Program-made: the position numbers and the translations under genes
Notes under the pieces: generated by a model
Seen by the model: the letters and a program-made list of their open reading frames with translations, nothing else
Told to the model about the DNA's origin: nothing
The model's database searches: none
IMG/VR virus record: IMGVR_UViG_3300037070_001539
Location: 1 to 28,184 of that record
Source: a virus
Strand: one strand, 5' to 3'
Length of the DNA stretch: 28,184 nt
Shown here: positions 314 through 12,008 of the stretch, one piece after another
Layout of the letters: each line of letters opens with the position of its first letter
How positions within the stretch are numbered: the first letter of the stretch is position 1

Positions 314-742
314 CTAGAGCTTGAAGATACGGTTCGTCGTGTTATCCCACTGAACTGTGAGGTCGCCCCCGTTCGGCCCCACAGGGAGGCCGGTTGCGGT
401 ATCGATGTAGGCGATCAGAGGCCAGTCCGAACCGTTAGCGGTTGCCGTCGAGGCGAAGACGACGAGAGCCCCAACCGTCGGGCCGGAAACTGCCGAGAAG
501 ACAACATCCGCGCCATCCGCGATACCGGAAGTCGCTGTCTTCGTCCCGAGGCTGGCGACCGAGAACCCAACCCGCGCCCCTGTGGGAACGGAAGTATATA
601 CCGTGTCCAGCGAAGCGTTGAACACATATGCTGTTGGGGTGTTTGAGATGGCTACAAGTCCGACGCGGATAGGACTCGTAAGCCAGTTGATTGATCCGCC
701 GAGGAAGTAGTTTCGTCCGACATCGTGGAGAACGTTTGCCAC
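314..742 (-). CDS. Small virion structural protein (common phage beta-rich family)
   Basis: The protein has 142 residues from a GTG start at 742-740, with AGGAGA about 9 nt upstream; no in-frame ATG exists at the N-terminus. The layout is typical of a small beta-rich structural protein often seen next to phage tail or head genes: an N-terminal NYFLGGSINWLTSPIRVGLV segment, a middle rich in A, S and T, and a C-terminal LIAYIDTATGLP followed by PNGGDLTVQWDN and a final IFKL. The family resemblance is from memory and the exact virion role is unknown. Its first 91 bases overlap the 3' end of the glycosyltransferase gene in another frame, so translation may be coupled. Confidence 0.7.
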   Translation of the reverse strand: MANVLHDVGRNYFLGGSINWLTSPIRVGLVAISNTPTAYVFNASLDTVYTSVPTGARVGFSVASLGTKTATSGIADGADVVFSAVSGPTVGALVVFASTATANGSDWPLIAYIDTATGLPVGPNGGDLTVQWDNTTNRIFKL

Positions 743-3714
743 TGGAGAGTCTCCTGTAGGAACTGCTCAGCCCAGAGTTCAGCTACCCTATCCCAGCTGA
801 TTGCCGGGGCGTGTTGCGAAACCTTCTTATGGATCGCCCTCCGCTCCTTCATCGGCTGCTGGAGAAGTGTAACGGTGGCTTTGATGTACTTGGCCTGAAC
901 TTCACTGTCGTGGACATCACCGTCGATGATGACGCCGGACTTCACAGTTTCTGCAAGACCAGCCAGGTGGTTTGTGATAGGAATTGCCCCAGCCAGCTGG
1001 GCTTCAACTGCTGTGATGCAGTACGTCTCGGTGAAGTATGTCGGGTAGAGCCACAGGGACGAGCGCTGGAACTCCTTCGCCAGCACTGCCTGATCAACTC
1101 GACCGTGCTGAGTCACGTTCTTCGAGTTGACCATAAGGCTCATCACCTTATGCTTGAACTCCTGCAGGTGCGGATACATCGGAGTGAACTTGTCGATGTT
1201 ATTCCATCCGTAGTACACGTGCAGCTCGGCTTCAGGAACTTCTTCAAGAACCTTAGGCCAGATGTGTTCCAGGATAACGTCGAGGCCACGATCAGGCGAC
1301 GACGAGTAGATCACCCGGTTGGGATTACGCTCGACCTGCTCATCGAACCTGCAGAGGTCGACGCCATTCCCGATGACGAAGATGCGGTCAGCCTTCAAGA
1401 AGGGGTACGTCTTCAGGACGTGCTGCTTGTGCCACTCGGTCAGAACCACGATGGCCGTGAACTTACTGGCACGAGCTTCTGTCAGGCGATCGCCCGCGTC
1501 CGTATCATGAAGCCACAGGACGAGTCGTTTCGTGTTGATTGGGAGGTCCGCAGCTTCCGGCCATCGCCAGGCGATGAACAGATCGGACTCAATCTGAGAG
1601 CGGAAGTGCGTCTGATCCCGATAGCAGACCCCATCGTAGTAGCCAGGTTCATCCACGCTGGAGTAGACGATCGCCCTGTGGCCCTGCTTCGAGAATGCTT
1701 CAGCCACTTTGATGACAGCAGTCTCAGAACCACCCAGCCCGGAAGCTGTGAGGGTACGAGGGTTCCAGGCTTCAGGCGATCCCATCGCCCCGAAGATGAT
1801 TGTCTTGTCCTGCGTGATTCCCGGCTCGTACTCTGCGAACAGCCAGCCCCTGTTAGCCCACGGCTGTCGGTACAGATTATGAATCTTGCCCCGAGGCGCC
1901 ATCAGCTTCTCAAGGTCGTACTGGTCGAAGATGCGAAGATGGCCCTTCGGCTCCAGTCGATCCCAGGCGGTGACGTTCCCCCCTTCCCAGGACAGGTATG
2001 GAGTCGTCATGATGATATGCTTGGCCGTCTTCTCCAGCCGCGTTAGCGTAGCCGCCGGATCAACAACGTGTTCGATGACCTCGAAGAAGATGGCCAGATC
2101 GGCCTTTTCTCCTTCCCAGGCCCCAATCTCATCCACGTTGCCAACTTCGAACCTGGCATCGGCCTTCCAGCGTAGCGCACGATCAGTAGCAAGTTGTGTG
2201 CAGCGAGGATCCAAATCGAAGCCAGTAACATGAATCCCCAGGTCAAGAGCGAGCGGAAGTCCGATAAAACCGTCCGAACAACCCCAGTCGACGACATTCT
2301 TCGCTCCGATCCGGCGAGCAGTATCCATCGCGAACTTGAATCGTGGATACTTCTTCCACTCATCCGAGAGGATCATCTCCTCATCCATCGACTCCCAATG
2401 CGGATTACCCGTATAGAAGTCAGTCATGATCTGAGGATTGTCAACGTGACCGGTCTGCAACATCGTCCGTTCCCATGTTTCCATGATTGCGGGATGCTGC
2501 TGAATCTGCTTCGGAAGAGCGTCGTACAGCTTGCGAACCTTGAGCCACTCATCATTGCGACCGAGATGCTCTCGGAGAGCGAGGAAGTTGTTCACCACAG
2601 AGGCGAGGTGAACCTCTCGCTGGAGCATCGTAATCAGATCAGCGATGTCCTGACGAGGCTGGATTTCGAATGCCTTCTGGTAGTTGGCCAGAGCCATCTC
2701 GTGATCATTCAAACGAGCGTACGCGCCCGCGAGGATGACCGCCGGGTAGAAGGAGTAGTCCAGCGGGTTGATGATGAGCATGGTCTGTGGAGACTGCTTC
2801 GATGCGCCGTTCTTAGTGTACTCGATCGCCGCAGCTGCGTTCTCCAAAGCCAGATATGTCTCAGCCATGCCGTACCAAGCATCAGGCCACTCTGGCTTGA
2901 TGGTGATGGCGGACATATCCGCGATGAGAGCCTTCTGGTAGTTCCCCATCACCCGATGCATATCAGCGACCCGATGCTGCATCTGGTAGCGTTCTTCGTC
3001 CCACCCAGAAAGCTTTACGAACCGCTGACCGTGCAGAACCGCCTCATGCAGATTGCCGCGTCCCATGTTCTCTGTGCAGAGGTAACCTAGGATTCGGGCA
3101 TCCGGGTTTGGTTCAGAGGCTTCGAGCTGCTGGTAGAGGATTTTGATGTTTCGGTCAGCTTCGTGCTTGTTCGGCGGCTTGTGGTGCATGACGACGATGC
3201 CATCAACCATCTTACCGTCCGGGACGAAGCCCTGCGGTGCGAGAACCTCATGTATCGGTCCAATCCAGCGCCACCCCTTGTCAGGGAGCTCGTCCTGAAG
3301 TCGAACGAGCCGCTCACGGATCAGATAACAAACGCAGTTGCCGCCTTCATCACGAGCGTAGTCGTAGCCCATGTAGAACGCGTCGATGTTCGGATTTGAA
3401 ACGACCTGCTGCCGGAGCTTTTCAGCTCCGACAAGCACGTCATCTCCGTCGACCCACAGGAAGTAGTCCCCTGTGACTCGATCGAGAACCTGATTTCTCG
3501 CTGCCGAGAAGTCGTTTGTCCACTCGATTGGGAAGACCGTGATCGGAACACCCTTCGAGATGAACTCTTGGATGATCTTCTCAGTGTTGTCTGTGGACTT
3601 CCCACCGAGACCAATCACGATCTCATCTACGTGGGGAGCCACAGACAGAAGGCACTGAGCGAGGGTTTGCCCCTCATTCTTCACGATCATCCCGAGGGAG
3701 ATCTTGAACGTCAT
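652..3714 (-). CDS. Multidomain glycosyltransferase: GT2, TPR, methyltransferase, GT-B
   Basis: This 1020-residue enzyme has four recognisable parts. Residues 1-200 are a GT-A family 2 glycosyltransferase (SLGMIVKNEGQTLAQCL, then the metal/nucleotide-binding WVDGDD at 87-92). Residues ~240-355 look like TPR helices (DAWYGMAETYLAL; ALANYQKAFEIQP). Residues ~440-620 form a class I SAM methyltransferase (VVDWGCSDGFIG around 474-485, EVIEH at 545-549). Residues ~635-990 are a GT-B glycosyltransferase (GLGGSE at 659-664, YSSSPDRGLD, then PTYFTETYCITAVEAQ with the EX7E-like donor-site region). The ATG at 3714 is needed to keep the first GT2 strand; a weak AAAGGA lies 14 nt upstream. The gene follows the major capsid gene, so a virion protein or cell-surface glycan is the likely acceptor (inference). 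The Ser/Thr-rich tail overlaps the next gene by 91 bp. Confidence 0.9.
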   Translation of the reverse strand: MTFKISLGMIVKNEGQTLAQCLLSVAPHVDEIVIGLGGKSTDNTEKIIQEFISKGVPITVFPIEWTNDFSAARNQVLDRVTGDYFLWVDGDDVLVGAEKLRQQVVSNPNIDAFYMGYDYARDEGGNCVCYLIRERLVRLQDELPDKGWRWIGPIHEVLAPQGFVPDGKMVDGIVVMHHKPPNKHEADRNIKILYQQLEASEPNPDARILGYLCTENMGRGNLHEAVLHGQRFVKLSGWDEERYQMQHRVADMHRVMGNYQKALIADMSAITIKPEWPDAWYGMAETYLALENAAAAIEYTKNGASKQSPQTMLIINPLDYSFYPAVILAGAYARLNDHEMALANYQKAFEIQPRQDIADLITMLQREVHLASVVNNFLALREHLGRNDEWLKVRKLYDALPKQIQQHPAIMETWERTMLQTGHVDNPQIMTDFYTGNPHWESMDEEMILSDEWKKYPRFKFAMDTARRIGAKNVVDWGCSDGFIGLPLALDLGIHVTGFDLDPRCTQLATDRALRWKADARFEVGNVDEIGAWEGEKADLAIFFEVIEHVVDPAATLTRLEKTAKHIIMTTPYLSWEGGNVTAWDRLEPKGHLRIFDQYDLEKLMAPRGKIHNLYRQPWANRGWLFAEYEPGITQDKTIIFGAMGSPEAWNPRTLTASGLGGSETAVIKVAEAFSKQGHRAIVYSSVDEPGYYDGVCYRDQTHFRSQIESDLFIAWRWPEAADLPINTKRLVLWLHDTDAGDRLTEARASKFTAIVVLTEWHKQHVLKTYPFLKADRIFVIGNGVDLCRFDEQVERNPNRVIYSSSPDRGLDVILEHIWPKVLEEVPEAELHVYYGWNNIDKFTPMYPHLQEFKHKVMSLMVNSKNVTQHGRVDQAVLAKEFQRSSLWLYPTYFTETYCITAVEAQLAGAIPITNHLAGLAETVKSGVIIDGDVHDSEVQAKYIKATVTLLQQPMKERRAIHKKVSQHAPAISWDRVAELWAEQFLQETLQWQTFSTMSDETTSSADQSTGLRVLSASDL

Positions 3715-3783: not shown

Positions 3784-4821
3784 TTACTGAATGGAACCGA
3801 TGATCCCGCGCCACTCGATCGGCTTGAAGTGGAAGTCGTGCCGAATCTTGTAGGCAATCTCGTCGAAGTCGAACGAGTAGGGATCGTTCCCACCCAGAAC
3901 AGCCTTCACACCCGGGTCCTTGAGGCCAAGGAACGGAGTGGTGTTGCCGTTGAGGGTGATGTAAGCGATCGGGCTCAGCGCGCCGGTCGGATCGGCCAGC
4001 ACGTAGTAGTCGCTCGGGTCCGTGAAGAACGGCTCGATCATCACGTTGTCCCACAGGCCGCGAACAAGGTTCGCTTCCAGCTGGGACGAACCGTTCGGGA
4101 GCAGCTCGTTCTCGTTGATCGCCTTCGCGACGAACCGGAGCTCCGTCGGGATGAGGAGCGTGCGGTTCCCAGGGGAGACGATGGTGTAACCCTCGTCATC
4201 CGTCATGTCGTCGAACTTGAGGTCGAGCGTCTGGAGCGTTCCCATCCCCACCGTGGTGGCGAGGAGAGGAGTCGTGACCAGGTTCCCGTGGTTCGCGCTG
4301 ATGAGCGCGTTGCCATCGTACATCGTCGGGTTAGCGGCGAGGCAGGTGATGGCGGCCTTCTTCGACATCGTGCGCGCGAGCGCCTCAGCGAGGAGGCCCG
4401 GAAGCTCCGCGATCTTGTTCAGACGATCAGAGATGATCATCTGCCGCGTGACGCTGAACGCAGCGCCCCACTCCTTCACGCGAATCTTCTCGTTGTCGAA
4501 TTCACGGATCGCCAGCTGGTCGTACTGCCCGCCCAGCCCGCGCTCCGGAATGTCGGCGAACCGGCCGAAGCGGCTCGAGGTGGATTCCTCGAAGTCTTCC
4601 ACGTCCATCTGCCGGGTGTAGCTCGGCCAGATGCCCTGAATCTCGGTGAACCGAGTCAGGAACCGGTGACGAACCAACTTGAGCATGTACGTGGGGAAGT
4701 CGTTGATGGAAATCGCCTCTTCGGCGTCCTCATCGAAGACTTCCTGGTTCTCCAGCGCATCCAGATATGCGTCGAAGAGCCGAACGTGCTTCCCACCGGG
4801 AAGACCCATCGAATTCGGCAC
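3784..4821 (-). CDS. Major capsid protein, Mu gpT-like
   Basis: The protein has 345 residues. The region around EWGAAFSVTRQMIISDRLN, followed by LPGLLAEALARTMSKKAA and ALISANHGNLVT, is characteristic of the Mu-type major head subunit (gpT family), a HK97-fold capsid protein. The length suits this family. The start is GTG 4821-4819, because GGAGGG lies 9 nt upstream and overlaps the stop of the preceding gene; an in-frame ATG four codons later is less well placed. The neighbours upstream are the decoration-like protein and the protease/scaffold, the standard capsid-assembly order. It is expected to assemble with the portal into the procapsid. Confidence 0.9.
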   Translation of the reverse strand: MPNSMGLPGGKHVRLFDAYLDALENQEVFDEDAEEAISINDFPTYMLKLVRHRFLTRFTEIQGIWPSYTRQMDVEDFEESTSSRFGRFADIPERGLGGQYDQLAIREFDNEKIRVKEWGAAFSVTRQMIISDRLNKIAELPGLLAEALARTMSKKAAITCLAANPTMYDGNALISANHGNLVTTPLLATTVGMGTLQTLDLKFDDMTDDEGYTIVSPGNRTLLIPTELRFVAKAINENELLPNGSSQLEANLVRGLWDNVMIEPFFTDPSDYYVLADPTGALSPIAYITLNGNTTPFLGLKDPGVKAVLGGNDPYSFDFDEIAYKIRHDFHFKPIEWRGIIGSIQ

Positions 4822-4827
4822 CGTAGA

Positions 4828-5226
4828 TTACCCTCCAACCGTGTGCTGGTTCTCCGGGCCGAACAGGACAACCCGGGCATAGGAAGCGCCGTTCACGTAG
4901 GTCGCCATCAGACGGCCCACAGCAACTGCGCCGGACGGGATCGAAATCCCGGGGAAGAGGGTAAGCGAAGTAGCCGTGTGCGACGGGGCTGCGAAGACCC
5001 GAAGACCGGCAGGGATGTTAGCACCCTGGAAGATCTGAGGCAGATCCCAAACACCGTCGAGGATCTGAACGAACGGCCGATCAGCCGCCGTCGGAGCAGA
5101 GGAGAAAGCAGCGTCGTCGTTGCTCACCCCGAAGAAGCCCTGGTGGTAGACCAGATCGCCAGCCTTGTGACCGAGCGTGGGAACCCAGCTCCGGCGTCGA
5201 CCGGCTCCGATGAATGTGCGTGCCAT
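4828..5226 (-). CDS. Small capsid decoration-type protein (DUF2190-like)
   Basis: The protein has 132 residues, with ATG at 5226 and AAGGAGAG 8 nt upstream. The VPTLGHKAGDLVYHQGFFGV segment resembles DUF2190-type proteins, which carry a similar 'gd.v.. g.fGv' beta-hairpin and in many phages lie between protease and major capsid genes as head decoration or stabilisation proteins. The rest is short hydrophobic beta strands with no enzyme motif. Its stop codon is embedded in the ribosome binding site of the major capsid gene (GGAGGGTAA), implying coupled, high-level expression. The family assignment is by pattern only. Confidence 0.65.
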   Translation of the reverse strand: MARTFIGAGRRRSWVPTLGHKAGDLVYHQGFFGVSNDDAAFSSAPTAADRPFVQILDGVWDLPQIFQGANIPAGLRVFAAPSHTATSLTLFPGISIPSGAVAVGRLMATYVNGASYARVVLFGPENQHTVGG

Positions 5227-5255: not shown

Positions 5256-6275
5256 TTAGTCCTTCTTATCGGGCTTGATCCCGAAAACCGCCTCGACGCC
5301 CTCACGAGCGTCCGTGTTCTTGGGCTTGCCACCGCCACCGGCAGCACCCGACGGACCCTCACCCTTGATGGCGGGGCCAACTCCAAGCTCCTTCAGCTCC
5401 TCCTTTGCATCCTCGACGGCCAGCTTGACATCGTCCTCGACGTACTCGAGCGCATCCGTGAACAGCCCGATGACGCGAGTCTGAACCCGCGGCGGAAGCC
5501 CAGCCTTCGCCACGTAGTCCCGAACGGACTTCGCGGTGATGGCCTTCTTCTCATTCTGCTCGTTGGCGCTCTGGACTGCTTCCTGAACGCCCTTGGCGAT
5601 CATCGCCGTAATCTCGTCGGCAGTCGGAGTGGGAGGCGGATCATCCTCACTCTCGGTGACCGGCTTGACCTCGGCCTTGATCTGCTCGATGAGCTGGGGC
5701 GCGTTGGCCTTCAGCGCATCGATCGTGACCTCGCTCCACTCCACCTGGTCTTCTCCTTCGCTTTCACGCGCGAAACTGAGGATTTCCCCTCCGGCGGAGG
5801 GATAAAGAACCCAGTCCACAGACCGGGCGAATGGGATCTCGAGGACGTCCTCGATCATCTTCTGGCCTTCCATCGCGGGGATGACGCGAATGCGATGGTC
5901 GGCTGAAACCCCGATGTACTTGCGGGCACGCTGTGCCTGATCGAAGAACTTCTCGTCGAAGAACTCGATCTCGCCCCGGATGCCGCCTGAAGGCTTGATC
6001 GTGGGGTCCCACGATGTGCTCTCAACCGCAGAAACCATCTCGCCGAAGTCGCGCTTCAGCGGGGGCTTCGAGCTGTGGTTGACGAACATCCGCATCCCAT
6101 TGTAGATGCCTTCTTTGGCAGCCTTCTGGAGCCCGGATGCCCGATAGTTCCGTGGGTTCTTTGCGCGACCAGCCTTGATGATGACAACGCTCGCCGTCAT
6201 CTTCCCCGTGGCTTCGTCCTTGCTGAACTCCGCTTCGAGGGCTTCGACCTCGTGTTCAATCCGTTCAGTCGGCAT
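5256..6275 (-). CDS. Capsid maturation protease fused to scaffold-like domain
   Basis: The protein has 339 residues. Residues ~1-165 look like a phage prohead serine protease: a MFVNHS segment with candidate catalytic His67 and KYIGVSADHRIRV with candidate Ser124, the usual spacing of the His/Ser pair in HK97-type proteases. Residues ~170-339 are acidic and helical with a low-complexity linker (DDPPPTPTADE) and a Gly-rich end, typical of an internal scaffold that the protease later removes. The ATG at 6275 has GGAGGAAAGG directly upstream. Position just before the decoration and capsid genes supports the call. I did not identify a third catalytic residue. Confidence 0.8.
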   Translation of the reverse strand: MPTERIEHEVEALEAEFSKDEATGKMTASVVIIKAGRAKNPRNYRASGLQKAAKEGIYNGMRMFVNHSSKPPLKRDFGEMVSAVESTSWDPTIKPSGGIRGEIEFFDEKFFDQAQRARKYIGVSADHRIRVIPAMEGQKMIEDVLEIPFARSVDWVLYPSAGGEILSFARESEGEDQVEWSEVTIDALKANAPQLIEQIKAEVKPVTESEDDPPPTPTADEITAMIAKGVQEAVQSANEQNEKKAITAKSVRDYVAKAGLPPRVQTRVIGLFTDALEYVEDDVKLAVEDAKEELKELGVGPAIKGEGPSGAAGGGGKPKNTDAREGVEAVFGIKPDKKD

Positions 6276-6284
6276 CCTTTCCTC

Positions 6285-6695
6285 CTAGACCGGCAGCTCT
6301 TCAGCTTCCATCTCGGGGTAGTTCGGGCCCTTGAGGATGCGAACCTCACCCTGCTTGGTGAGCTGATACTTCCCACCGTTGGAAGTGACGAATGTCCGCT
6401 TCTGGGCGTTCACGGAGATGACATCGCCCTTCTTATACCCTGACTTCTTCAGGAAGACGGCGGTGTTCTTGTCCGTCGCCGGCGCAGCATCTGAAGACTG
6501 CCCCTTCGGCTCGATGCGATCAGGCGTCGAGAGCGTGGGGTTGTTGTCGCTGGTGCCGGGGTTCCGGTCGTCGAGGGTGTTGATCTGACCCTCTTCCGGT
6601 GTGTTGTCGCCAACGCCAGCTTCGGCCTTCGCCTTGCCCGCGTCATCGCCGGAGTTGCCGGTGCTGGAACCAGTGGTCGTGGTATCGTCTGTCAT
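6285..6695 (-). CDS. Small head-region protein with acidic linker and paralogous C-terminal domain
   Basis: The protein has 136 residues. Residues 1-75 are low-complexity and rich in T, S, G, D and N, so probably disordered. The compact C-terminus, SGYKKGDVISVNAQKRTF followed by VTSNGGKYQL, matches the C-terminus of the next gene upstream (6705-6932): both share G-Y, D, S, N, R-x-F, T-x-NGGxY and a terminal GP. ATG at 6695, with AGGAGG upstream in the short gap. The domain looks like a small SH3-like beta barrel. Its place between the MuF-like protein and the protease suggests a minor head or connector role, but none is established. Confidence 0.6.
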   Translation of the reverse strand: MTDDTTTTGSSTGNSGDDAGKAKAEAGVGDNTPEEGQINTLDDRNPGTSDNNPTLSTPDRIEPKGQSSDAAPATDKNTAVFLKKSGYKKGDVISVNAQKRTFVTSNGGKYQLTKQGEVRILKGPNYPEMEAEELPV

Positions 6696-6704
6696 GATTT
6701 CCTC

Positions 6705-6932
6705 CTAGAAGTCCCACCGATCTTCAAGTGCCGGTGGCGGACCTGCGAGGTGCACGATGTCGTCTGCGGCGAACAGGTAGTGCCCGCCGTTGCGTGTGAG
6801 GAACTCTCGATGTAGGTAGTTCAACGAGAGAATGTCGGAGGGACCGTAACCGGTCGCTTCGAAGAACTGAGAACGGAGCTCACGCTGTTCGTCAGTAAGT
6901 GGCATTTCCTGAAGCATTGGTTCTAGGCCCAT
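6705..6932 (-). CDS. Small head-region protein sharing a domain with its neighbour
   Basis: The protein has about 75 residues from ATG 6932, with GGAGG 6 nt upstream. A longer reading from 7022 lacks a comparable ribosome binding site and would overlap the MuF-like gene much further. The N-terminal half (PLTDEQRELRSQFFEATGYG) looks helical. The C-terminal half (SDILSLNYLHREFLTRNGGH) is paralogous to the end of the 6285-6695 product. It overlaps the 3' end of the MuF-like gene by 41 bp. The function is unknown; a head completion or connector role is possible from position. Confidence 0.6.
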   Translation of the reverse strand: MGLEPMLQEMPLTDEQRELRSQFFEATGYGPSDILSLNYLHREFLTRNGGHYLFAADDIVHLAGPPPALEDRWDF

Positions 6933-7647
6933 TCGAAACCTCCAGTAACAGCCCTCGCAGTCTGTCAGCAAGATCCTCATTAGGTAGAGGAATCCCATTC
7001 GCCAACTCGATTGTACAACCACAGCGCGTGAGTCCGAGGCAGACAGAACCGTCGCCTGGGGCTCCTGGAAGCGGTGGAAGTCCTAATCCAGAGGTCCTAT
7101 CACGTTGGTATGGACCCTGGTAGGAGGCAAGCTGGCACTCTAAGCAGTGTTCGGTGATTCCCAGTCGCCATCTGTAGGGGCCGGGAGGCATTGCTTCAAC
7201 CCGTCCCCGCTCGAAGATTCCCCGCAGTCCTAGCAGATACAGCCTCGAGCGATGAACCGGATCAAGAAGAACGTCCCCAGCACGAATATCGCGAGCAAAA
7301 CCTCGAAGGAACCCGGTTTCTTCAGCCAATTCTTCACTAAGGATCCTAACATCTCGATCTGTCATAGTGTAGAATGGGAAGATCGAGATAGCGCCTAGTG
7401 AATAGGCGATGTAATATGCACGAAAGATGACTGCCTTACTTCTTGCAACGAATCCTCGAAAACCAATAGAACCGGAGGCAAGACCATCAACGAGAAATAG
7501 GAGCTCGCGGTTGAGCGTCCGTCCAGCAGCCACGAAAGATCGCTCAATCTCTCTTCCGTCAGCGAGTCCAAAGGAACGGCTATCAGGGTGCAGATATGGC
7601 GAATCTGCCCTTCTGAACGATTGATAGTCATTCCGGCTTTGGGCCAT
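6892..7647 (-). CDS. MuF-like minor head protein
   Basis: The protein has 251 residues. The C-terminal region has the cysteine/histidine pattern of phage MuF-type head morphogenesis proteins: ITEHCLECQ (His167, Cys168, Cys171), then a Gly/Pro loop and CLGLTRCGCTIEL (Cys203, Cys209, Cys211), probably binding zinc. The helical N-terminal half is consistent with the family, whose members bind the portal inside the capsid. The gene lies immediately downstream of the portal and overlaps it by 20 bp, the usual place for MuF. ATG at 7647, with GAAGG 7 nt upstream. Sequence divergence makes the family call probable, not certain. Confidence 0.7.
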   Translation of the reverse strand: MAQSRNDYQSFRRADSPYLHPDSRSFGLADGREIERSFVAAGRTLNRELLFLVDGLASGSIGFRGFVARSKAVIFRAYYIAYSLGAISIFPFYTMTDRDVRILSEELAEETGFLRGFARDIRAGDVLLDPVHRSRLYLLGLRGIFERGRVEAMPPGPYRWRLGITEHCLECQLASYQGPYQRDRTSGLGLPPLPGAPGDGSVCLGLTRCGCTIELANGIPLPNEDLADRLRGLLLEVSNGPRTNASGNATY

Positions 7648-9601
7648 TCGAAACCTTCTCGCCCTTACCCTTCACTAGGTGCTGGGTGTTAGGTCCGAGC
7701 CCACCAGTCGGAAGCTTCGCCTTTGGACGGTCCGTCCCGCCTTCTTCAGGGGCTCCGCCAGCAGCCAAACTCGCCGCCAGCAGTTGCTGCTGCTGAATCC
7801 GCAGCTGCTCTGCGTGCTCCATCTCCGCTTCCACCTCAGGCATCATGCCGTCGATGTTGGCGACGCCCATGATGTTGAGCGACCCGCGAATAGCTTCCTG
7901 CTTCACGCGCATGTTGTTCGGAGCGATGTCGCGAACGATCTGAGCCCAAGAAGTGGTGAACTTCACAACGTCCTGTGAGATGATTGGCGGGAAGGTGAAC
8001 CCGACCCGTTCCATCGCAGCTTCCACAAGCTCGTCGTCGTCAAGTGCCGCCGTGAGTGAGTATCGGATCCACTCTTTGTATTCGTCGTCGATCCACTGCT
8101 GCCAATCCTCATAGGTCTTCACCATCGGAAGTTCCATGGACTGAGCAGTTGCGAGGTTCGCGTCGCCACCCTCGCCGAAGTAGTGAACCATCGTTCCCAT
8201 GCCAGCACCGCCGACCATCAGCAGCATCTTGGCATCTTCTTTGGCGTTTGCAGCTCCTGTGTCCGTCTTCATCCACTCGAGGTCAATCGCCTCGTTGTGG
8301 TCGTACACAGCTCCTGGATTCGGACGTGTGAGCTTGCGTGTCTCGCTGCCAGCGTCAGCTCCAGTGCTCATCCCACCGAATGTGCCTTGGAACTGAGCAA
8401 CTGCTGTCGGTCCGGCCTTCACCTTCCGCTTGTAGGAGATGCTCTGGGCCGCCTGATTGATGGCAGCTCGACCCTCCATGAATTCACGGAAGACGCGGAA
8501 CCATTCACGAGACGAATAGAGTTCTGAAATCCCCCGCTTCCCGGACTTCGTCCACAGGGGGTTCACGTAGGAGTGCCGAATCTTCCGATCAGTCACCAGC
8601 TTCGATGCTGGAATCTTGATCAGCTTCTTCAGTTCCTTCCATTTCTCGTCGGTGATGCGATAATCCAGGTAATACTTGACCTTCGGATCACCATCGGGTA
8701 CGTAACGATCATTTGTCCCGTCGTACTTCTGGGACTGGAACAACCGACGATAGAGCACTGGCTCAAGGCGATTGTCCGGGTTGTAGACGATTCCATCAAT
8801 TTCCTCGAGGGGAATCTCGGTGACTTTGATGTACGGCGGTGAGTCTTCTGAGAAGCATGCGTAGAACTTCTCGCCATCCGTGATGACGTCATCCAGAAAT
8901 TCCTGCATTGCCCTGTGGGACGTAATCGCGAGTTGATTGTCCCGATCCTTCCAGAACGCCTCGACAATCTCTCGAACCTGATCGTCCTTGGCTGCGCTGT
9001 TCGGTCCATTGCTGCGAATGCTCGGGACGACGGGCTCAACTTCATTCGTGGGATTGTTCGGCGGGACGTTCCCATTGCCATTCTTGCTGGGATCGTACCC
9101 ATTCCCAGTATCCAGTTCCTGGGCTCGCGCCATTCTCGGCAGCTGCACAAACTTCGTCTGCGTTGGTCGGTACGCAGCGTGAGGCTTGTCGCCTTCAAGC
9201 AGGCTTGCTTTGCCGTTGGCGCTCTGCCCAGGAACCGGAACCTCAGAGGCGGGCTGCTCGTTCTCATCCGGAGGTTCAGAGGCAAGAACCCACTGAACAC
9301 CCTTTCCCAGGGTGAACCGGAGAATAAGTTTGACAGCCTGCTTCGCGAGCGGATTGTCATGGCGCAAACGACGAAGACGCGTGATCGTCTTCTTCCTATC
9401 CGCACCAGGAAGAACCTCTCCGATATTGTTGATATCGTAGAGGTTCAGGTAGTCGATGTCCTCGATCGTCCGCTGAAGCATCTGGTTATCTGAATACAGA
9501 TGTTCAACAGCGTCGCGGACTTCGGTGAGCTGCGTATTCTGTTCCTCGAAGACATCTTCAAGTCCGGCAACCTTCGCGATTGCCTGCTGAACCTGGTTCA
9601 T
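7628..9601 (-). CDS. Portal protein
   Basis: The protein has 657 residues. It follows the terminase region and precedes the MuF-like, protease and capsid genes. Features expected of a portal: a core around the HRAMQEFLDDVITDGEKFYA segment, a long central beta/alpha wing, RAAINQAAQSISYKRKVKA, and a helical C-terminus with a Gln-rich stretch (EHAEQLRIQQQQLLAASLA). Residues ~110-205 hold an unusually long low-complexity insert rich in N, P, G and E. The N-terminal ~45 residues look coiled-coil. ATG at 9601 lies 1 nt after the stop of the beta-helix gene with no strong Shine-Dalgarno sequence, so translation is probably coupled. The portal is the dodecameric vertex through which TerL pumps DNA. 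Confidence 0.88.
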   Translation of the reverse strand: MNQVQQAIAKVAGLEDVFEEQNTQLTEVRDAVEHLYSDNQMLQRTIEDIDYLNLYDINNIGEVLPGADRKKTITRLRRLRHDNPLAKQAVKLILRFTLGKGVQWVLASEPPDENEQPASEVPVPGQSANGKASLLEGDKPHAAYRPTQTKFVQLPRMARAQELDTGNGYDPSKNGNGNVPPNNPTNEVEPVVPSIRSNGPNSAAKDDQVREIVEAFWKDRDNQLAITSHRAMQEFLDDVITDGEKFYACFSEDSPPYIKVTEIPLEEIDGIVYNPDNRLEPVLYRRLFQSQKYDGTNDRYVPDGDPKVKYYLDYRITDEKWKELKKLIKIPASKLVTDRKIRHSYVNPLWTKSGKRGISELYSSREWFRVFREFMEGRAAINQAAQSISYKRKVKAGPTAVAQFQGTFGGMSTGADAGSETRKLTRPNPGAVYDHNEAIDLEWMKTDTGAANAKEDAKMLLMVGGAGMGTMVHYFGEGGDANLATAQSMELPMVKTYEDWQQWIDDEYKEWIRYSLTAALDDDELVEAAMERVGFTFPPIISQDVVKFTTSWAQIVRDIAPNNMRVKQEAIRGSLNIMGVANIDGMMPEVEAEMEHAEQLRIQQQQLLAASLAAGGAPEEGGTDRPKAKLPTGGLGPNTQHLVKGKGEKVSNGPKPE

Positions 9602-9602
9602 G

Positions 9603-10583
9603 TCAGCCCCATGTGCAGTTCTCGAGGATCAGCCCAGCAGGCTTGCCGCTCGGATAGTAGGGCTGACGGCCGGTGTTGGAGACAACGCGGCGAAGAACGA
9701 CGTTCGGTCCGCAGGCGTTGACGTTCAGCGGAGTCGCAGTTCCGGTGATCTGGCTATCCTCGATCAGCACGTCGCGGACGGAGCCCTCGTAGATGAGGAT
9801 CGCGGACATTGGCTGCGCTCCGTCAACCTTCATCCGACGCACGGTCAGGTTGTAGCCGTTCGGCGCGTGGTAGAACTGAAGTGCCGACTTGATCCCAGCT
9901 CCTGGGGTGCAGAGGTAGTCCTCGATCAGGACATCATGCCAGGCATCTGAGCTGAAATACATGGCATGATCGTTGTTCGCGGTCGCAGCAACGATACCCC
10001 TCAGAACCGACAACTTCCGCAGGCTGATGTGATGAGGTGCCGGCTTGCCGTACGCGCCGAACACGACCGAACCGCTCTGGTAAGGCTTCGCGTTGTCGAG
10101 GGAGAAGCCTCTCCAGTCCTGATCGTGGGCTCCATCAACAAAGGTGATGTGACCGGTGTTCGCCCCACCACCATCAAAGATGACTTCACCAGGCGTCTCA
10201 GCTCGAACGACTACAGGATTGGTTCTGCCTGCGAACCTAGAGCCAATCCACAAGCTAGTTGCCTGCTGCGTGTGAACCGGAGCTACCGGGTATCGTCCGT
10301 TCGCGACTACGATGTCCTTCGCGTTGTTATCAGCGAGGGCGTTGAGCAGAGCCTGAATCGAAGTGACCTTGATCCCAGGGGGTGGCGTGATGACTGGGGG
10401 AGGCTCCACAGGGGGTGGCGTGACGATCGGGGGCTTCTCCAACACCAGAAGACGCTTGTTTAGGTCTGTAACCGCGTTCATCAGCGGAACGACGACCTCA
10501 TCGTGGTACGTCGTAAGCTCATGAGAGTGCAGACCAGAGTTCGACTTCGGAACGGAACGCTGTTCAGTTCGCGGAATAGCCAT
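9603..10583 (-). CDS. Right-handed beta-helix protein between terminase and portal
   Basis: The protein has 326 residues. Residues ~20-48 are helical and coiled-coil-like, 51-70 are a proline linker (PPIVTPPPVEPPPVITPPPG), and 73-326 are a parallel beta-helix of the pectate-lyase/right-handed type, with repeated rungs such as DVLIEDYLCT, NLTVRRMKVDG, DVLIEDSQITG, VVLRRVVSNTG and GLILENCTWG. No catalytic pair can be assigned confidently. Such folds usually bind or cut polysaccharide in tailspikes. ATG at 10583 has TTGGAG 6 nt upstream and directly follows the TerL stop (TAGATG). Its location inside the packaging cassette is unusual for a spike or depolymerase. Confidence 0.75.
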   Translation of the reverse strand: MAIPRTEQRSVPKSNSGLHSHELTTYHDEVVVPLMNAVTDLNKRLLVLEKPPIVTPPPVEPPPVITPPPGIKVTSIQALLNALADNNAKDIVVANGRYPVAPVHTQQATSLWIGSRFAGRTNPVVVRAETPGEVIFDGGGANTGHITFVDGAHDQDWRGFSLDNAKPYQSGSVVFGAYGKPAPHHISLRKLSVLRGIVAATANNDHAMYFSSDAWHDVLIEDYLCTPGAGIKSALQFYHAPNGYNLTVRRMKVDGAQPMSAILIYEGSVRDVLIEDSQITGTATPLNVNACGPNVVLRRVVSNTGRQPYYPSGKPAGLILENCTWG

Positions 10584-12008
10584 CTAATACTCCAACCCCA
10601 GCGATACTCGTTCATCCATGTCCGGGATGACCTGATTCCAACTCACCGCTTCGTAGCTCTCATCCTTGCGATCTTCATTGAAGAGAGCGGGGAAGTAGTT
10701 GTAGTACCCGTATCGAACTGCGTCGATAGTGTGGTTGTCGATGTCCACAGGGTTCTCGGACGAGTTGACTTCTACGCGCTGTCGGATCGTGTCCGGGTAA
10801 TGGTAAAGTCCGTGTTCCTTGATTGCCGCTTTACAACGAGGGTCGTATGTGATACGAGGGACGATGAGCTGATCGGTGGATCGAAGTGGATCGCGGAGGA
10901 ACATATGGTGAACTTCAATCCCCCGGCGGACGTTCGTCGGCTTCTCCGATCGCGTCCGATAGCCGCGAAGTCTCCAAGTAGCAATTGCTTCAGAAGCCGC
11001 CTTGTCAACAACAACGTCAATCTCCTCTCGAGGATTGCCGAAGTCATTGAGAATGTACGGACCCCACTTGTTCTCGGCAAGCCTCACTACGTCACTTGTT
11101 GTATGCTGCGTGACGTAGATCTCATCCAGAACGTGAACTTCCTCTTCTGGCGTGATTTGAACCAGGAGAACGCAGTACGGGGCTGCTGATCCGGGGTCCA
11201 CCCACAGGGACGTTCGAAGCAAGGGATTGAAGACGTGGGAGCGAACGTGAACTTCCGAAGTGAATTCGGGGAATACCAGTCCACCGTATGCGATGAACTT
11301 GGCCTCCCATTCTTGTGCGAAGGCCTCCGGCGATGAATTCCGGCGGGCTTCCTCGATTTCTTCAGGAGGAAGGATCGGGTTCGACCGGGACGGAACTGTC
11401 CAGGATTCCCACCAGGCATGATCGGGATTGTCGTTGCTCTGGCCCTTGAGAAAGAACTCATGGAACCAGTTGAAGCCTCGCGGCGTTGACGAGAACAGAG
11501 CTCGTCCCTGGCGATCGGCAAGGGCCGGCCGGATGTACTGATGCCAGGTCCGTTCCTTCAACCGAGCAGCCTCGGCGAGAACGATGAAGTCCAAGCCTTC
11601 CCCGATGAGCTGATCCGGGTTCTCTTCGGACCGGCACTCGATCATGGAGCCGTTTTCGAACTGGATGAACAGCTCTCGTTCTGACTTGCGTCGAACGGGG
11701 ATCAAGCCCTTGTTGACGACGAGGTTCCAGACGACACGGAACTCTTTCTCAGCAAGGTCCATCGTCGGACCTACGATCCAGATATACGAACCGGGAATGA
11801 TGCACTGCGCGAAGGCTTCCCGCCCTCCCAGAACTGACTTCCCGATGCGTCGTCCGCCGTTGAGAACGCGGAATCTAGCCGTCGAGCGGTGAACTTGTGC
11901 CTGGTACGAGAACGTCTGAAGCCCCGTACTCCGGAAAATCGCTCCCATTCTTTCCGGGGTCAGGAGCGAAGAGCGCGGCGAGGATATTGTCATACTTGTT
12001 TCCGACAT
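10584..12008 (-). CDS. terL: Terminase large subunit
   Basis: The protein has 474 residues and is the ATP-driven packaging motor and nuclease. The ATPase domain shows Walker A GGRRIGKS (51-58), Walker B DFIVLAEAA (140-148; the usual Asp before the catalytic Glu is Ala, as in some phage terminases) and a coupling motif SSTP (173-176). The RNase H-like nuclease shows WVDPGS (Asp271), LDEIY (Asp295/Glu296) and DNHTIDAVRYG (Asp429). ATG at 12008 has GGAAGG about 8 nt upstream. The gene overlaps the preceding small-subunit candidate by 134 bp, so a start further in cannot be excluded, though the chosen ATG has the better ribosome binding site. Confidence 0.95.
   Translation of the reverse strand: MSETSMTISSPRSSLLTPERMGAIFRSTGLQTFSYQAQVHRSTARFRVLNGGRRIGKSVLGGREAFAQCIIPGSYIWIVGPTMDLAEKEFRVVWNLVVNKGLIPVRRKSERELFIQFENGSMIECRSEENPDQLIGEGLDFIVLAEAARLKERTWHQYIRPALADRQGRALFSSTPRGFNWFHEFFLKGQSNDNPDHAWWESWTVPSRSNPILPPEEIEEARRNSSPEAFAQEWEAKFIAYGGLVFPEFTSEVHVRSHVFNPLLRTSLWVDPGSAAPYCVLLVQITPEEEVHVLDEIYVTQHTTSDVVRLAENKWGPYILNDFGNPREEIDVVVDKAASEAIATWRLRGYRTRSEKPTNVRRGIEVHHMFLRDPLRSTDQLIVPRITYDPRCKAAIKEHGLYHYPDTIRQRVEVNSSENPVDIDNHTIDAVRYGYYNYFPALFNEDRKDESYEAVSWNQVIPDMDERVSLGLEY

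What the first reader, a model, noticed from the sequence alone, without database searches (positions are those of the whole stretch)
652..3714. Four-domain GT2-TPR-methyltransferase-GT-B enzyme in the capsid operon
Two glycosyltransferases of different folds plus a SAM methyltransferase and a TPR region are fused in one 1020-residue protein, directly downstream of the major capsid gene. This is enough chemistry to build and cap a small methylated glycan on one acceptor. Phage virion glycosylation is known, but a single-chain enzyme with this domain set next to the capsid gene would be a strong candidate for a self-contained virion modification system.
Basis: partly seen in the sequence, partly recalled or inferred. 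Interest (0 to 1): 0.75.

Follow-up and report, generated by a model that had tools for sequence, protein, structure and literature searches.

The report
Capsid-linked two-glycosyltransferase–methyltransferase fusion enzyme
An uncultured phage carries, right after its capsid gene, one large enzyme with two different sugar-adding domains and a methyl-adding domain; relatives in many unrelated phages sit at the same spot, so these phages very probably decorate their own particles with a small methylated sugar chain.

Summary
ORF 652-3714(-) encodes 1020 aa: GT-A/GT2, TPR, class-I SAM methyltransferase (MTase), GT-B. Family searches and a confident AlphaFold model support all four domains. It starts 69 nt after the major capsid (MCP) stop, on the structural-gene strand. 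In related contigs (MCP 54-86% identical), wherever sequence continues past MCP the same fusion follows (13 further non-duplicate complete copies). Catalytic motifs are invariant; dN/dS is about 0.13 against the closest relative.

A search started from the enzyme alone found 51 contigs with a GT2-TPR-GT-B relative lacking the internal MTase. In 47 it lies 0.3-1.9 kb downstream of an MCP of a different family (SU10_MCP). Against sampled phages of this type the enzyme is the only shared gene, apart from weak TerL matches. The MTase joined the enzyme about three times independently (once internally, twice at the C-terminus); elsewhere it is a neighbouring gene.

Best reading: a late, soluble enzyme that puts a short methylated glycan on a virion protein, most likely the capsid. 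Acceptor, sugars and chemistry are unproven. Function-level precedents: PBCV-1 A064R and mycobacteriophage capsid glycosylation. New variant of a known kind.

The parts
652..3714 (-). GT2-TPR-MTase-GT-B fusion protein, 1020 aa
3175..3702 (-). GT-A fold glycosyltransferase domain (GT2), residues ~5-180
   Evidence: Pfam PF00535 3e-16; nearest solved structures by sequence GmaR and SunS/ThuS, by fold SunS/ThuS
3439..3450 (-). DGDD motif (res 89-92), metal/nucleotide-sugar site of GT2, invariant in 14 homologues
3247..3252 (-). invariant His-Glu (res 155-156) of the WxxxHE motif of the GT2 domain
   Evidence: also conserved in the three-domain relatives
2650..3153 (-). TPR / alpha-helical repeat region, residues ~188-355
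   Evidence: Pfam TPR_1/TPR_8; paired helices in the model
2329..2649 (-). conserved helical linker, residues ~356-462
1819..2328 (-). class-I SAM methyltransferase domain, residues ~463-632; motif I VVDWGCSDG res 474-482, acidic D500, FFEVIEH res 543-549
   Evidence: Pfam PF13489 4e-13; invariant motif residues
760..1809 (-). GT-B (GT4-like) glycosyltransferase domain, residues ~636-985, with GLGGSET and E-X7-E (res 896-904) motifs
   Evidence: Pfam PF13692, PF13439, PF00534; PDB fold matches GlgM, PimA, BshA, glycogen synthase
652..750 (-). variable disordered C-terminal tail (res 989-1020) plus stop, overlapping the next gene
   Evidence: pLDDT < 50; absent or different in relatives
3784..4821 (-). 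major capsid protein (Phage_capsid_4), upstream neighbour and most likely acceptor
   Evidence: always upstream of the enzyme in relatives where the sequence is available
4828..5226 (-). head decoration/cement-like protein, alternative acceptor
   Evidence: weak matches Phage_cement_2 0.003, phrog_122 0.022
314..742 (-). downstream gene (phrog_644, unknown function), overlaps the enzyme's 3' end

Best explanation
The gene encodes a soluble, late-expressed virion-glycosylation enzyme. The acceptor is most likely the major capsid protein made from the gene just upstream, or another head protein such as the decoration protein. Sugars come from host nucleotide-sugar pools. Shown: domain composition, intact catalytic motifs, structural-operon position, conserved linkage to MCP, purifying selection. 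Inferred: late expression, acceptor identity, order of steps, O-methylation of the sugar, biological role.
For: All four domains supported by Pfam and a confident model; fold matches to protein/peptide glycosyltransferases SunS, ThuS, SPY and OGT (the SPY/OGT matches reflect the TPR + GT-B combination, at low whole-chain TM-scores). In the window's lineage the enzyme follows MCP at a median 58 nt and every contig that continues past MCP has it. An enzyme-seeded scan found 51 relatives, 47 with an SU10-family MCP 326-1851 nt upstream (MCP family); against a sample of these phages the enzyme is the only window gene with a match apart from weak TerL hits. The MTase is recruited repeatedly: internal (window lineage), C-terminal (L072/L074/L075 and, on another branch, L118), an overlapping separate gene (L085) or a separate gene in the head block (ctf1B273 and relatives). 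Only one GT2 gene per contig in the window's lineage. Corndog gp35-38 (O-MTase + 3 GTs in the structural operon) and PBCV-1 A064R (GT-GT-MTase in the MCP glycan) are precedents.
Against: No biochemical or proteomic data. No acceptor peptide can be read from the sequence. The CAZy-type folds do not fix the acceptor; related GT2 enzymes also act on non-protein acceptors. Adjacency in a late operon does not prove that the acceptor is in the virion. Some of the SU10-MCP contigs are close relatives, so the 47 are not independent events. Inter-domain placement in the model is uncertain (pTM 0.63).
Confidence: 0.62

Rival explanations
1. It modifies a virion component other than the head (tail tube, tail fibre/receptor-binding protein), altering adsorption rather than capsid surface.
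For: Tail tube as well as capsid is modified in cluster O mycobacteriophages. The structural operon continues into tail genes downstream of the enzyme in relatives (gene map; a Laminin_G_3 lectin-like protein is present).
Against: The recurrent neighbour is the MCP, in two MCP families, not a tail gene.
Confidence: 0.15
2. It remodels host envelope glycans during infection (receptor masking or superinfection exclusion).
For: GT2 and GT4 enzymes are commonly polysaccharide enzymes; the MTase domain has distant matches to WbdD, an O-antigen chain-capping enzyme. Such a role has been proposed for phage glycosyltransferases in freshwater actinophages (PMC10202952).
Against: No membrane segment is evident in sequence or model; SunS-like GT2 with TPR; a late position locked to MCP is odd for an early exclusion function; no other polysaccharide genes were found by the families searched in the contigs.
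Confidence: 0.13
3. It glycosylates hypermodified phage DNA.
For: The related 60-kb contig encodes a thymidylate-synthase-family protein, a dUTPase and a cytosine methylase, and DNA protection has been proposed for phage glycosyltransferases.
Against: The gene is linked to the capsid, not to nucleotide-metabolism genes; the closest solved GT2 relatives act on proteins or peptides.
Confidence: 0.05
4. It acts on a host protein (for example a surface appendage), as the flagellin glycosyltransferase GmaR does.
For: GmaR is the best PDB match by sequence for the GT2 domain (1e-12).
Against: Linkage to MCP in two MCP families; GmaR similarity covers only the generic GT2 N-terminal part.
Confidence: 0.05

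Closest known systems
Chlorovirus PBCV-1 A064R
   Same: One viral polypeptide with two glycosyltransferase domains and a methyltransferase domain, acting on the glycan of the major capsid protein Vp54 (PMC7019647).
   Different: Eukaryotic algal virus; order GT-GT-MTase, no TPR; extends an N-glycan made by several enzymes. No sequence match to the window protein was listed among PDB chains.
Mycobacteriophage virion glycosylation (Corndog gp35-gp38; Che8)
   Same: Tailed-phage O-methyltransferase plus glycosyltransferases; in Corndog they lie in the structural operon; capsid and tail tube reported modified (PMC4351075; PMC11600133; Freeman et al. 2023 cited there, itself not held).
   Different: Separate genes, not one chain; in Corndog between portal and protease rather than after MCP; no Mycobacterium phage was hit by tblastn with the window protein at 1e-5.
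GT2-TPR-GT-B proteins next to SU10-type MCP in uncultured phages (e.g. ctKR88 MW202524; IMG/VR contigs)
   Same: Homologous GT2-TPR and GT-B domains in the same order (27-38% identity per domain in the members compared), downstream of MCP.
   Different: No internal MTase; MTase absent, C-terminal, or a separate gene; a different MCP family; GT-B motif EX7K instead of EX7E in the three members aligned.
SunS/ThuS peptide S-glycosyltransferases
   Same: GT2 fold followed by a helical region; best PDB fold matches for one GT half.
   Different: Single GT; act on Cys of a bacteriocin peptide. The MCP of the window's lineage has no conserved Cys, so S-linkage to MCP is unlikely.
SPINDLY/OGT protein O-glycosyltransferases
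   Same: TPR plus GT-B architecture in fold search.
   Different: Low whole-chain TM-scores; GT41 family; no GT-A or MTase domain.

Membership tests
Glycosyltransferase family 2 (GT-A), N-terminal domain | PF00535 match over cut-off | tested here: met
   60.1 bits vs cut-off 23.3
Glycosyltransferase family 2 (GT-A), N-terminal domain | DxD-type motif intact | tested here: met
   DGDD res 89-92 invariant in 14 homologues
GT-B / GT4-like glycosyltransferase, C-terminal domain | PF13692/PF00534/PF13439 match and EX7E motif | tested here: met
   30.5, 26.4 and 29.3 bits, at or over cut-offs; E896 and E904 invariant
GT-B / GT4-like glycosyltransferase, C-terminal domain | GT-B two-lobe fold | tested here: met
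   AlphaFold/Foldseek: GlgM 6tvp TMt 0.66, PimA 2gej TMt 0.68
Class-I SAM methyltransferase | Profile match and motif I / post-I acidic residue | tested here: met
   PF13489 49.8 bits vs cut-off 27; D476, G478, D481, G482, D500 invariant
Sugar O-methyltransferase | Methylates a sugar hydroxyl | not testable with these tools
   Only distant resemblance (WbdD 3.5e-4); needs an assay
Phage virion glycosylation system | Glycosyltransferase genes in or beside the structural operon | tested here: met
Phage virion glycosylation system | Glycan shown on a virion protein | not testable with these tools
   no cultured member; needs MS of virions
PBCV-1 A064R family | Sequence homology and GT-GT-MTase order | tested here: not met
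   Order here is GT2-TPR-MTase-GT-B; no A064R chain among PDB hits to E 0.1. It may work like A064R but is not a member.
SunS-type S-glycosyltransferase | NCBIfam TIGR04195 cut-off | tested here: not met
   45.3 bits vs cut-off 350
Mycobacteriophage (Corndog/Che8) glycosyltransferases | Sequence homology | tested here: not met
   No Mycobacterium phage among tblastn hits at 1e-5; profile-level relation not tested

The most novel reading that the evidence does not exclude
A widespread, previously undescribed class of head-linked virion-glycan synthases in tailed phages: one GT2-TPR-GT-B polypeptide retained beside the capsid gene across different MCP families, onto which a glycan-capping methyltransferase was fused at least three separate times. 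In the window's lineage it behaves as a core head gene, which suggests the methylated glycan is part of normal capsid maturation or stability rather than an optional accessory.
Probability: 0.4. Interest if true: 0.8.

Novelty: new variant of a known kind. Interest (0 to 1): 0.6.

Why it matters
Phage capsid glycosylation has been shown in few systems, with separate enzymes. Here one polypeptide would carry two transfer steps and a methyl cap, and it stays beside capsid genes across different phage types. That would make virion glycosylation a recurrent trait of environmental phages, gives a genomic marker (GT2-TPR-GT-B after MCP) to find it, and provides single-gene enzymes for testing which virion protein is modified and what the glycan does (stability, adsorption, shielding).

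Tried and rejected
A spurious fusion or frame artefact was rejected: the four-domain order recurs in other contigs. A bacterial donor: the pattern-based genome-contig scan with the profile found only GT2 relatives (25-31%) in Clostridium ihumii and a Planctomycetales MAG, no four-domain protein; this scan is limited and does not exclude one. Phage-encoded sugar-nucleotide synthesis was sought and not found (PF01370, PF00483). Cys-linked (SunS-like) modification of MCP: rejected for MCP because no Cys is conserved in it. A cultured phage with the fusion: none in INPHARED. Papers describing the fusion: none in the held library (none; nothing on this gene); Freeman et al. 2023 is not held. DNA hypermodification kept only as a weak rival. 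One batch of the methyltransferase/intein Pfam scan failed on a wrong coordinate and was repeated.

Full report
OBSERVATION. The feature is an ORF on the minus strand, 652-3714, ATG start, 1020 aa. Pfam places GT2 at residues 6-94, TPR around 329-354 (weaker units from 220), a class-I methyltransferase at 471-608 and GT-B signatures at 731-962. PHROGs agrees: phrog_13126 over 4-355, phrog_2170 over 746-927, phrog_22502 over 450-560. The AlphaFold model (14 homologues) has mean pLDDT 86.4 and pTM 0.63, with disorder only at 989-1020, so domains are reliable but their mutual placement is not. Foldseek against PDB returns SunS/ThuS, SPY/OGT and GT-B enzymes such as GlgM and PimA.

NEIGHBOURHOOD. 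On the same strand, upstream, lie TerL (10584-12008), portal (7628-9601), a protease-like protein (5256-6275), a cement-like protein (4828-5226) and MCP (3784-4821, Phage_capsid_4). The enzyme starts 69 nt after the MCP stop; no promoter or terminator above chance lies between. A phrog_644 gene of unknown function (314-742) overlaps its 3' end.

THE WINDOW'S LINEAGE. Searches seeded with the enzyme and with MCP recovered contigs with MCP 54-86% identical. Wherever the sequence continues past MCP, apart from one contig ending about 290 nt after it (L043), the next gene is the same enzyme; every complete copy has all four domains. Alignment of 14 copies shows invariant DGDD, HE, methyltransferase motif I, GGSE and EX7E residues. 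dN/dS between window and L002 is 0.13 for the enzyme, 0.16 for MCP and 0.08 for TerL; other pairs were mostly saturated in dS. The ~56-62 kb related contigs each have one GT2 gene, and no PF01370 or PF00483 protein.

THE WIDER FAMILY. INPHARED holds only distant relatives. In podovirus ctKR88 (MW202524) a 761-aa GT2-TPR-GT-B protein follows MCP after one small gene, then further GT and MTase genes. In siphovirus ctf1B273 (MW202497) the GT2-TPR plus half of GT-B, the other GT-B half and a separate MTase gene (32% identical to the window MTase domain, 2e-15) lie between TerL and portal. A scan seeded only with three-domain proteins returned 51 contigs; 47 have an SU10-family MCP 326-1851 nt upstream (median 412), and the other four are the split type with a separate MTase gene. 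Because this scan used no MCP information, the linkage is not built in, though some contigs are close relatives. Window structural genes compared with eight such loci match only through the enzyme, except TerL with L067 (1e-33) and weakly with L029.

MTASE RECRUITMENT. A tree of the shared GT domains (quick IQ-TREE, SH-aLRT) groups all 14 internal-MTase proteins (100), the split type (100), and needs two separate origins for C-terminal MTases (L072/L075; L118). L085, sister to L072/L075, has the MTase as a separate gene overlapping the enzyme's end. About three independent fusions is the simplest reading. Repeated joining of the same activities suggests that they act on one product.

MECHANISM. 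Shown: domains, intact motifs, operon position, linkage, selection. Inferred: GT2-TPR starts on a polypeptide, GT-B extends, MTase caps; late expression; host sugars. The acceptor is most likely MCP, because the linkage to MCP holds in two MCP families; decoration or tail proteins remain possible. S-linkage to MCP is unlikely (no conserved Cys).

KNOWN SYSTEMS. PBCV-1 A064R combines two GTs and an MTase in one chain for the capsid glycan (PMC7019647). Corndog-type phages carry an O-MTase and GTs in the structural operon, and capsid and tail-tube modification has been reported (PMC4351075; PMC11600133; PMC11256854). The window protein works plausibly like these but is not a member of either by the tests made. 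No paper on this fusion was found in the held library, which is not exhaustive.

VERDICT. Observation confirmed; interpretation partly supported. New variant of a known kind, interest 0.6.

Noticed in passing
L091:3308-6430: The three-domain enzyme of this contig carries an intein (PF14890, 1e-21) inserted inside the GT-B catalytic EX7E/K motif.
   Followed up: partly
L067:3472-7791 (MW202497); also L111, L112, L114, L116: The GT-B domain is split between its lobes into two ORFs; in L067 a phage GroEL gene (5640-7208, phrog_5725) lies between them, followed by a separate MTase gene annotated 'capping protein'.
   Followed up: partly
L072, L074, L075, L077, L087, L100: The SU10-type MCP appears as two ORFs about 370-750 nt apart, suggesting an intron or other insertion in the capsid gene.
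   Followed up: no
window 9603-10583 (-): 326-aa protein, by eye beta-helix-like with no Pfam or PHROG match, between TerL and portal; relatives L002, L003, L005, L007 have only a short gap there.
   Followed up: no
window 6285-6695 and 6705-7022 (-): Two small, apparently paralogous genes upstream of the protease gene; relatives also have two matching ORFs there.
   Followed up: no
L085:6887-9810: Sister of the C-terminally fused L072/L075: MTase gene overlaps the enzyme's 3' end by about 31 nt, a likely pre-fusion or fission state.
   Followed up: partly
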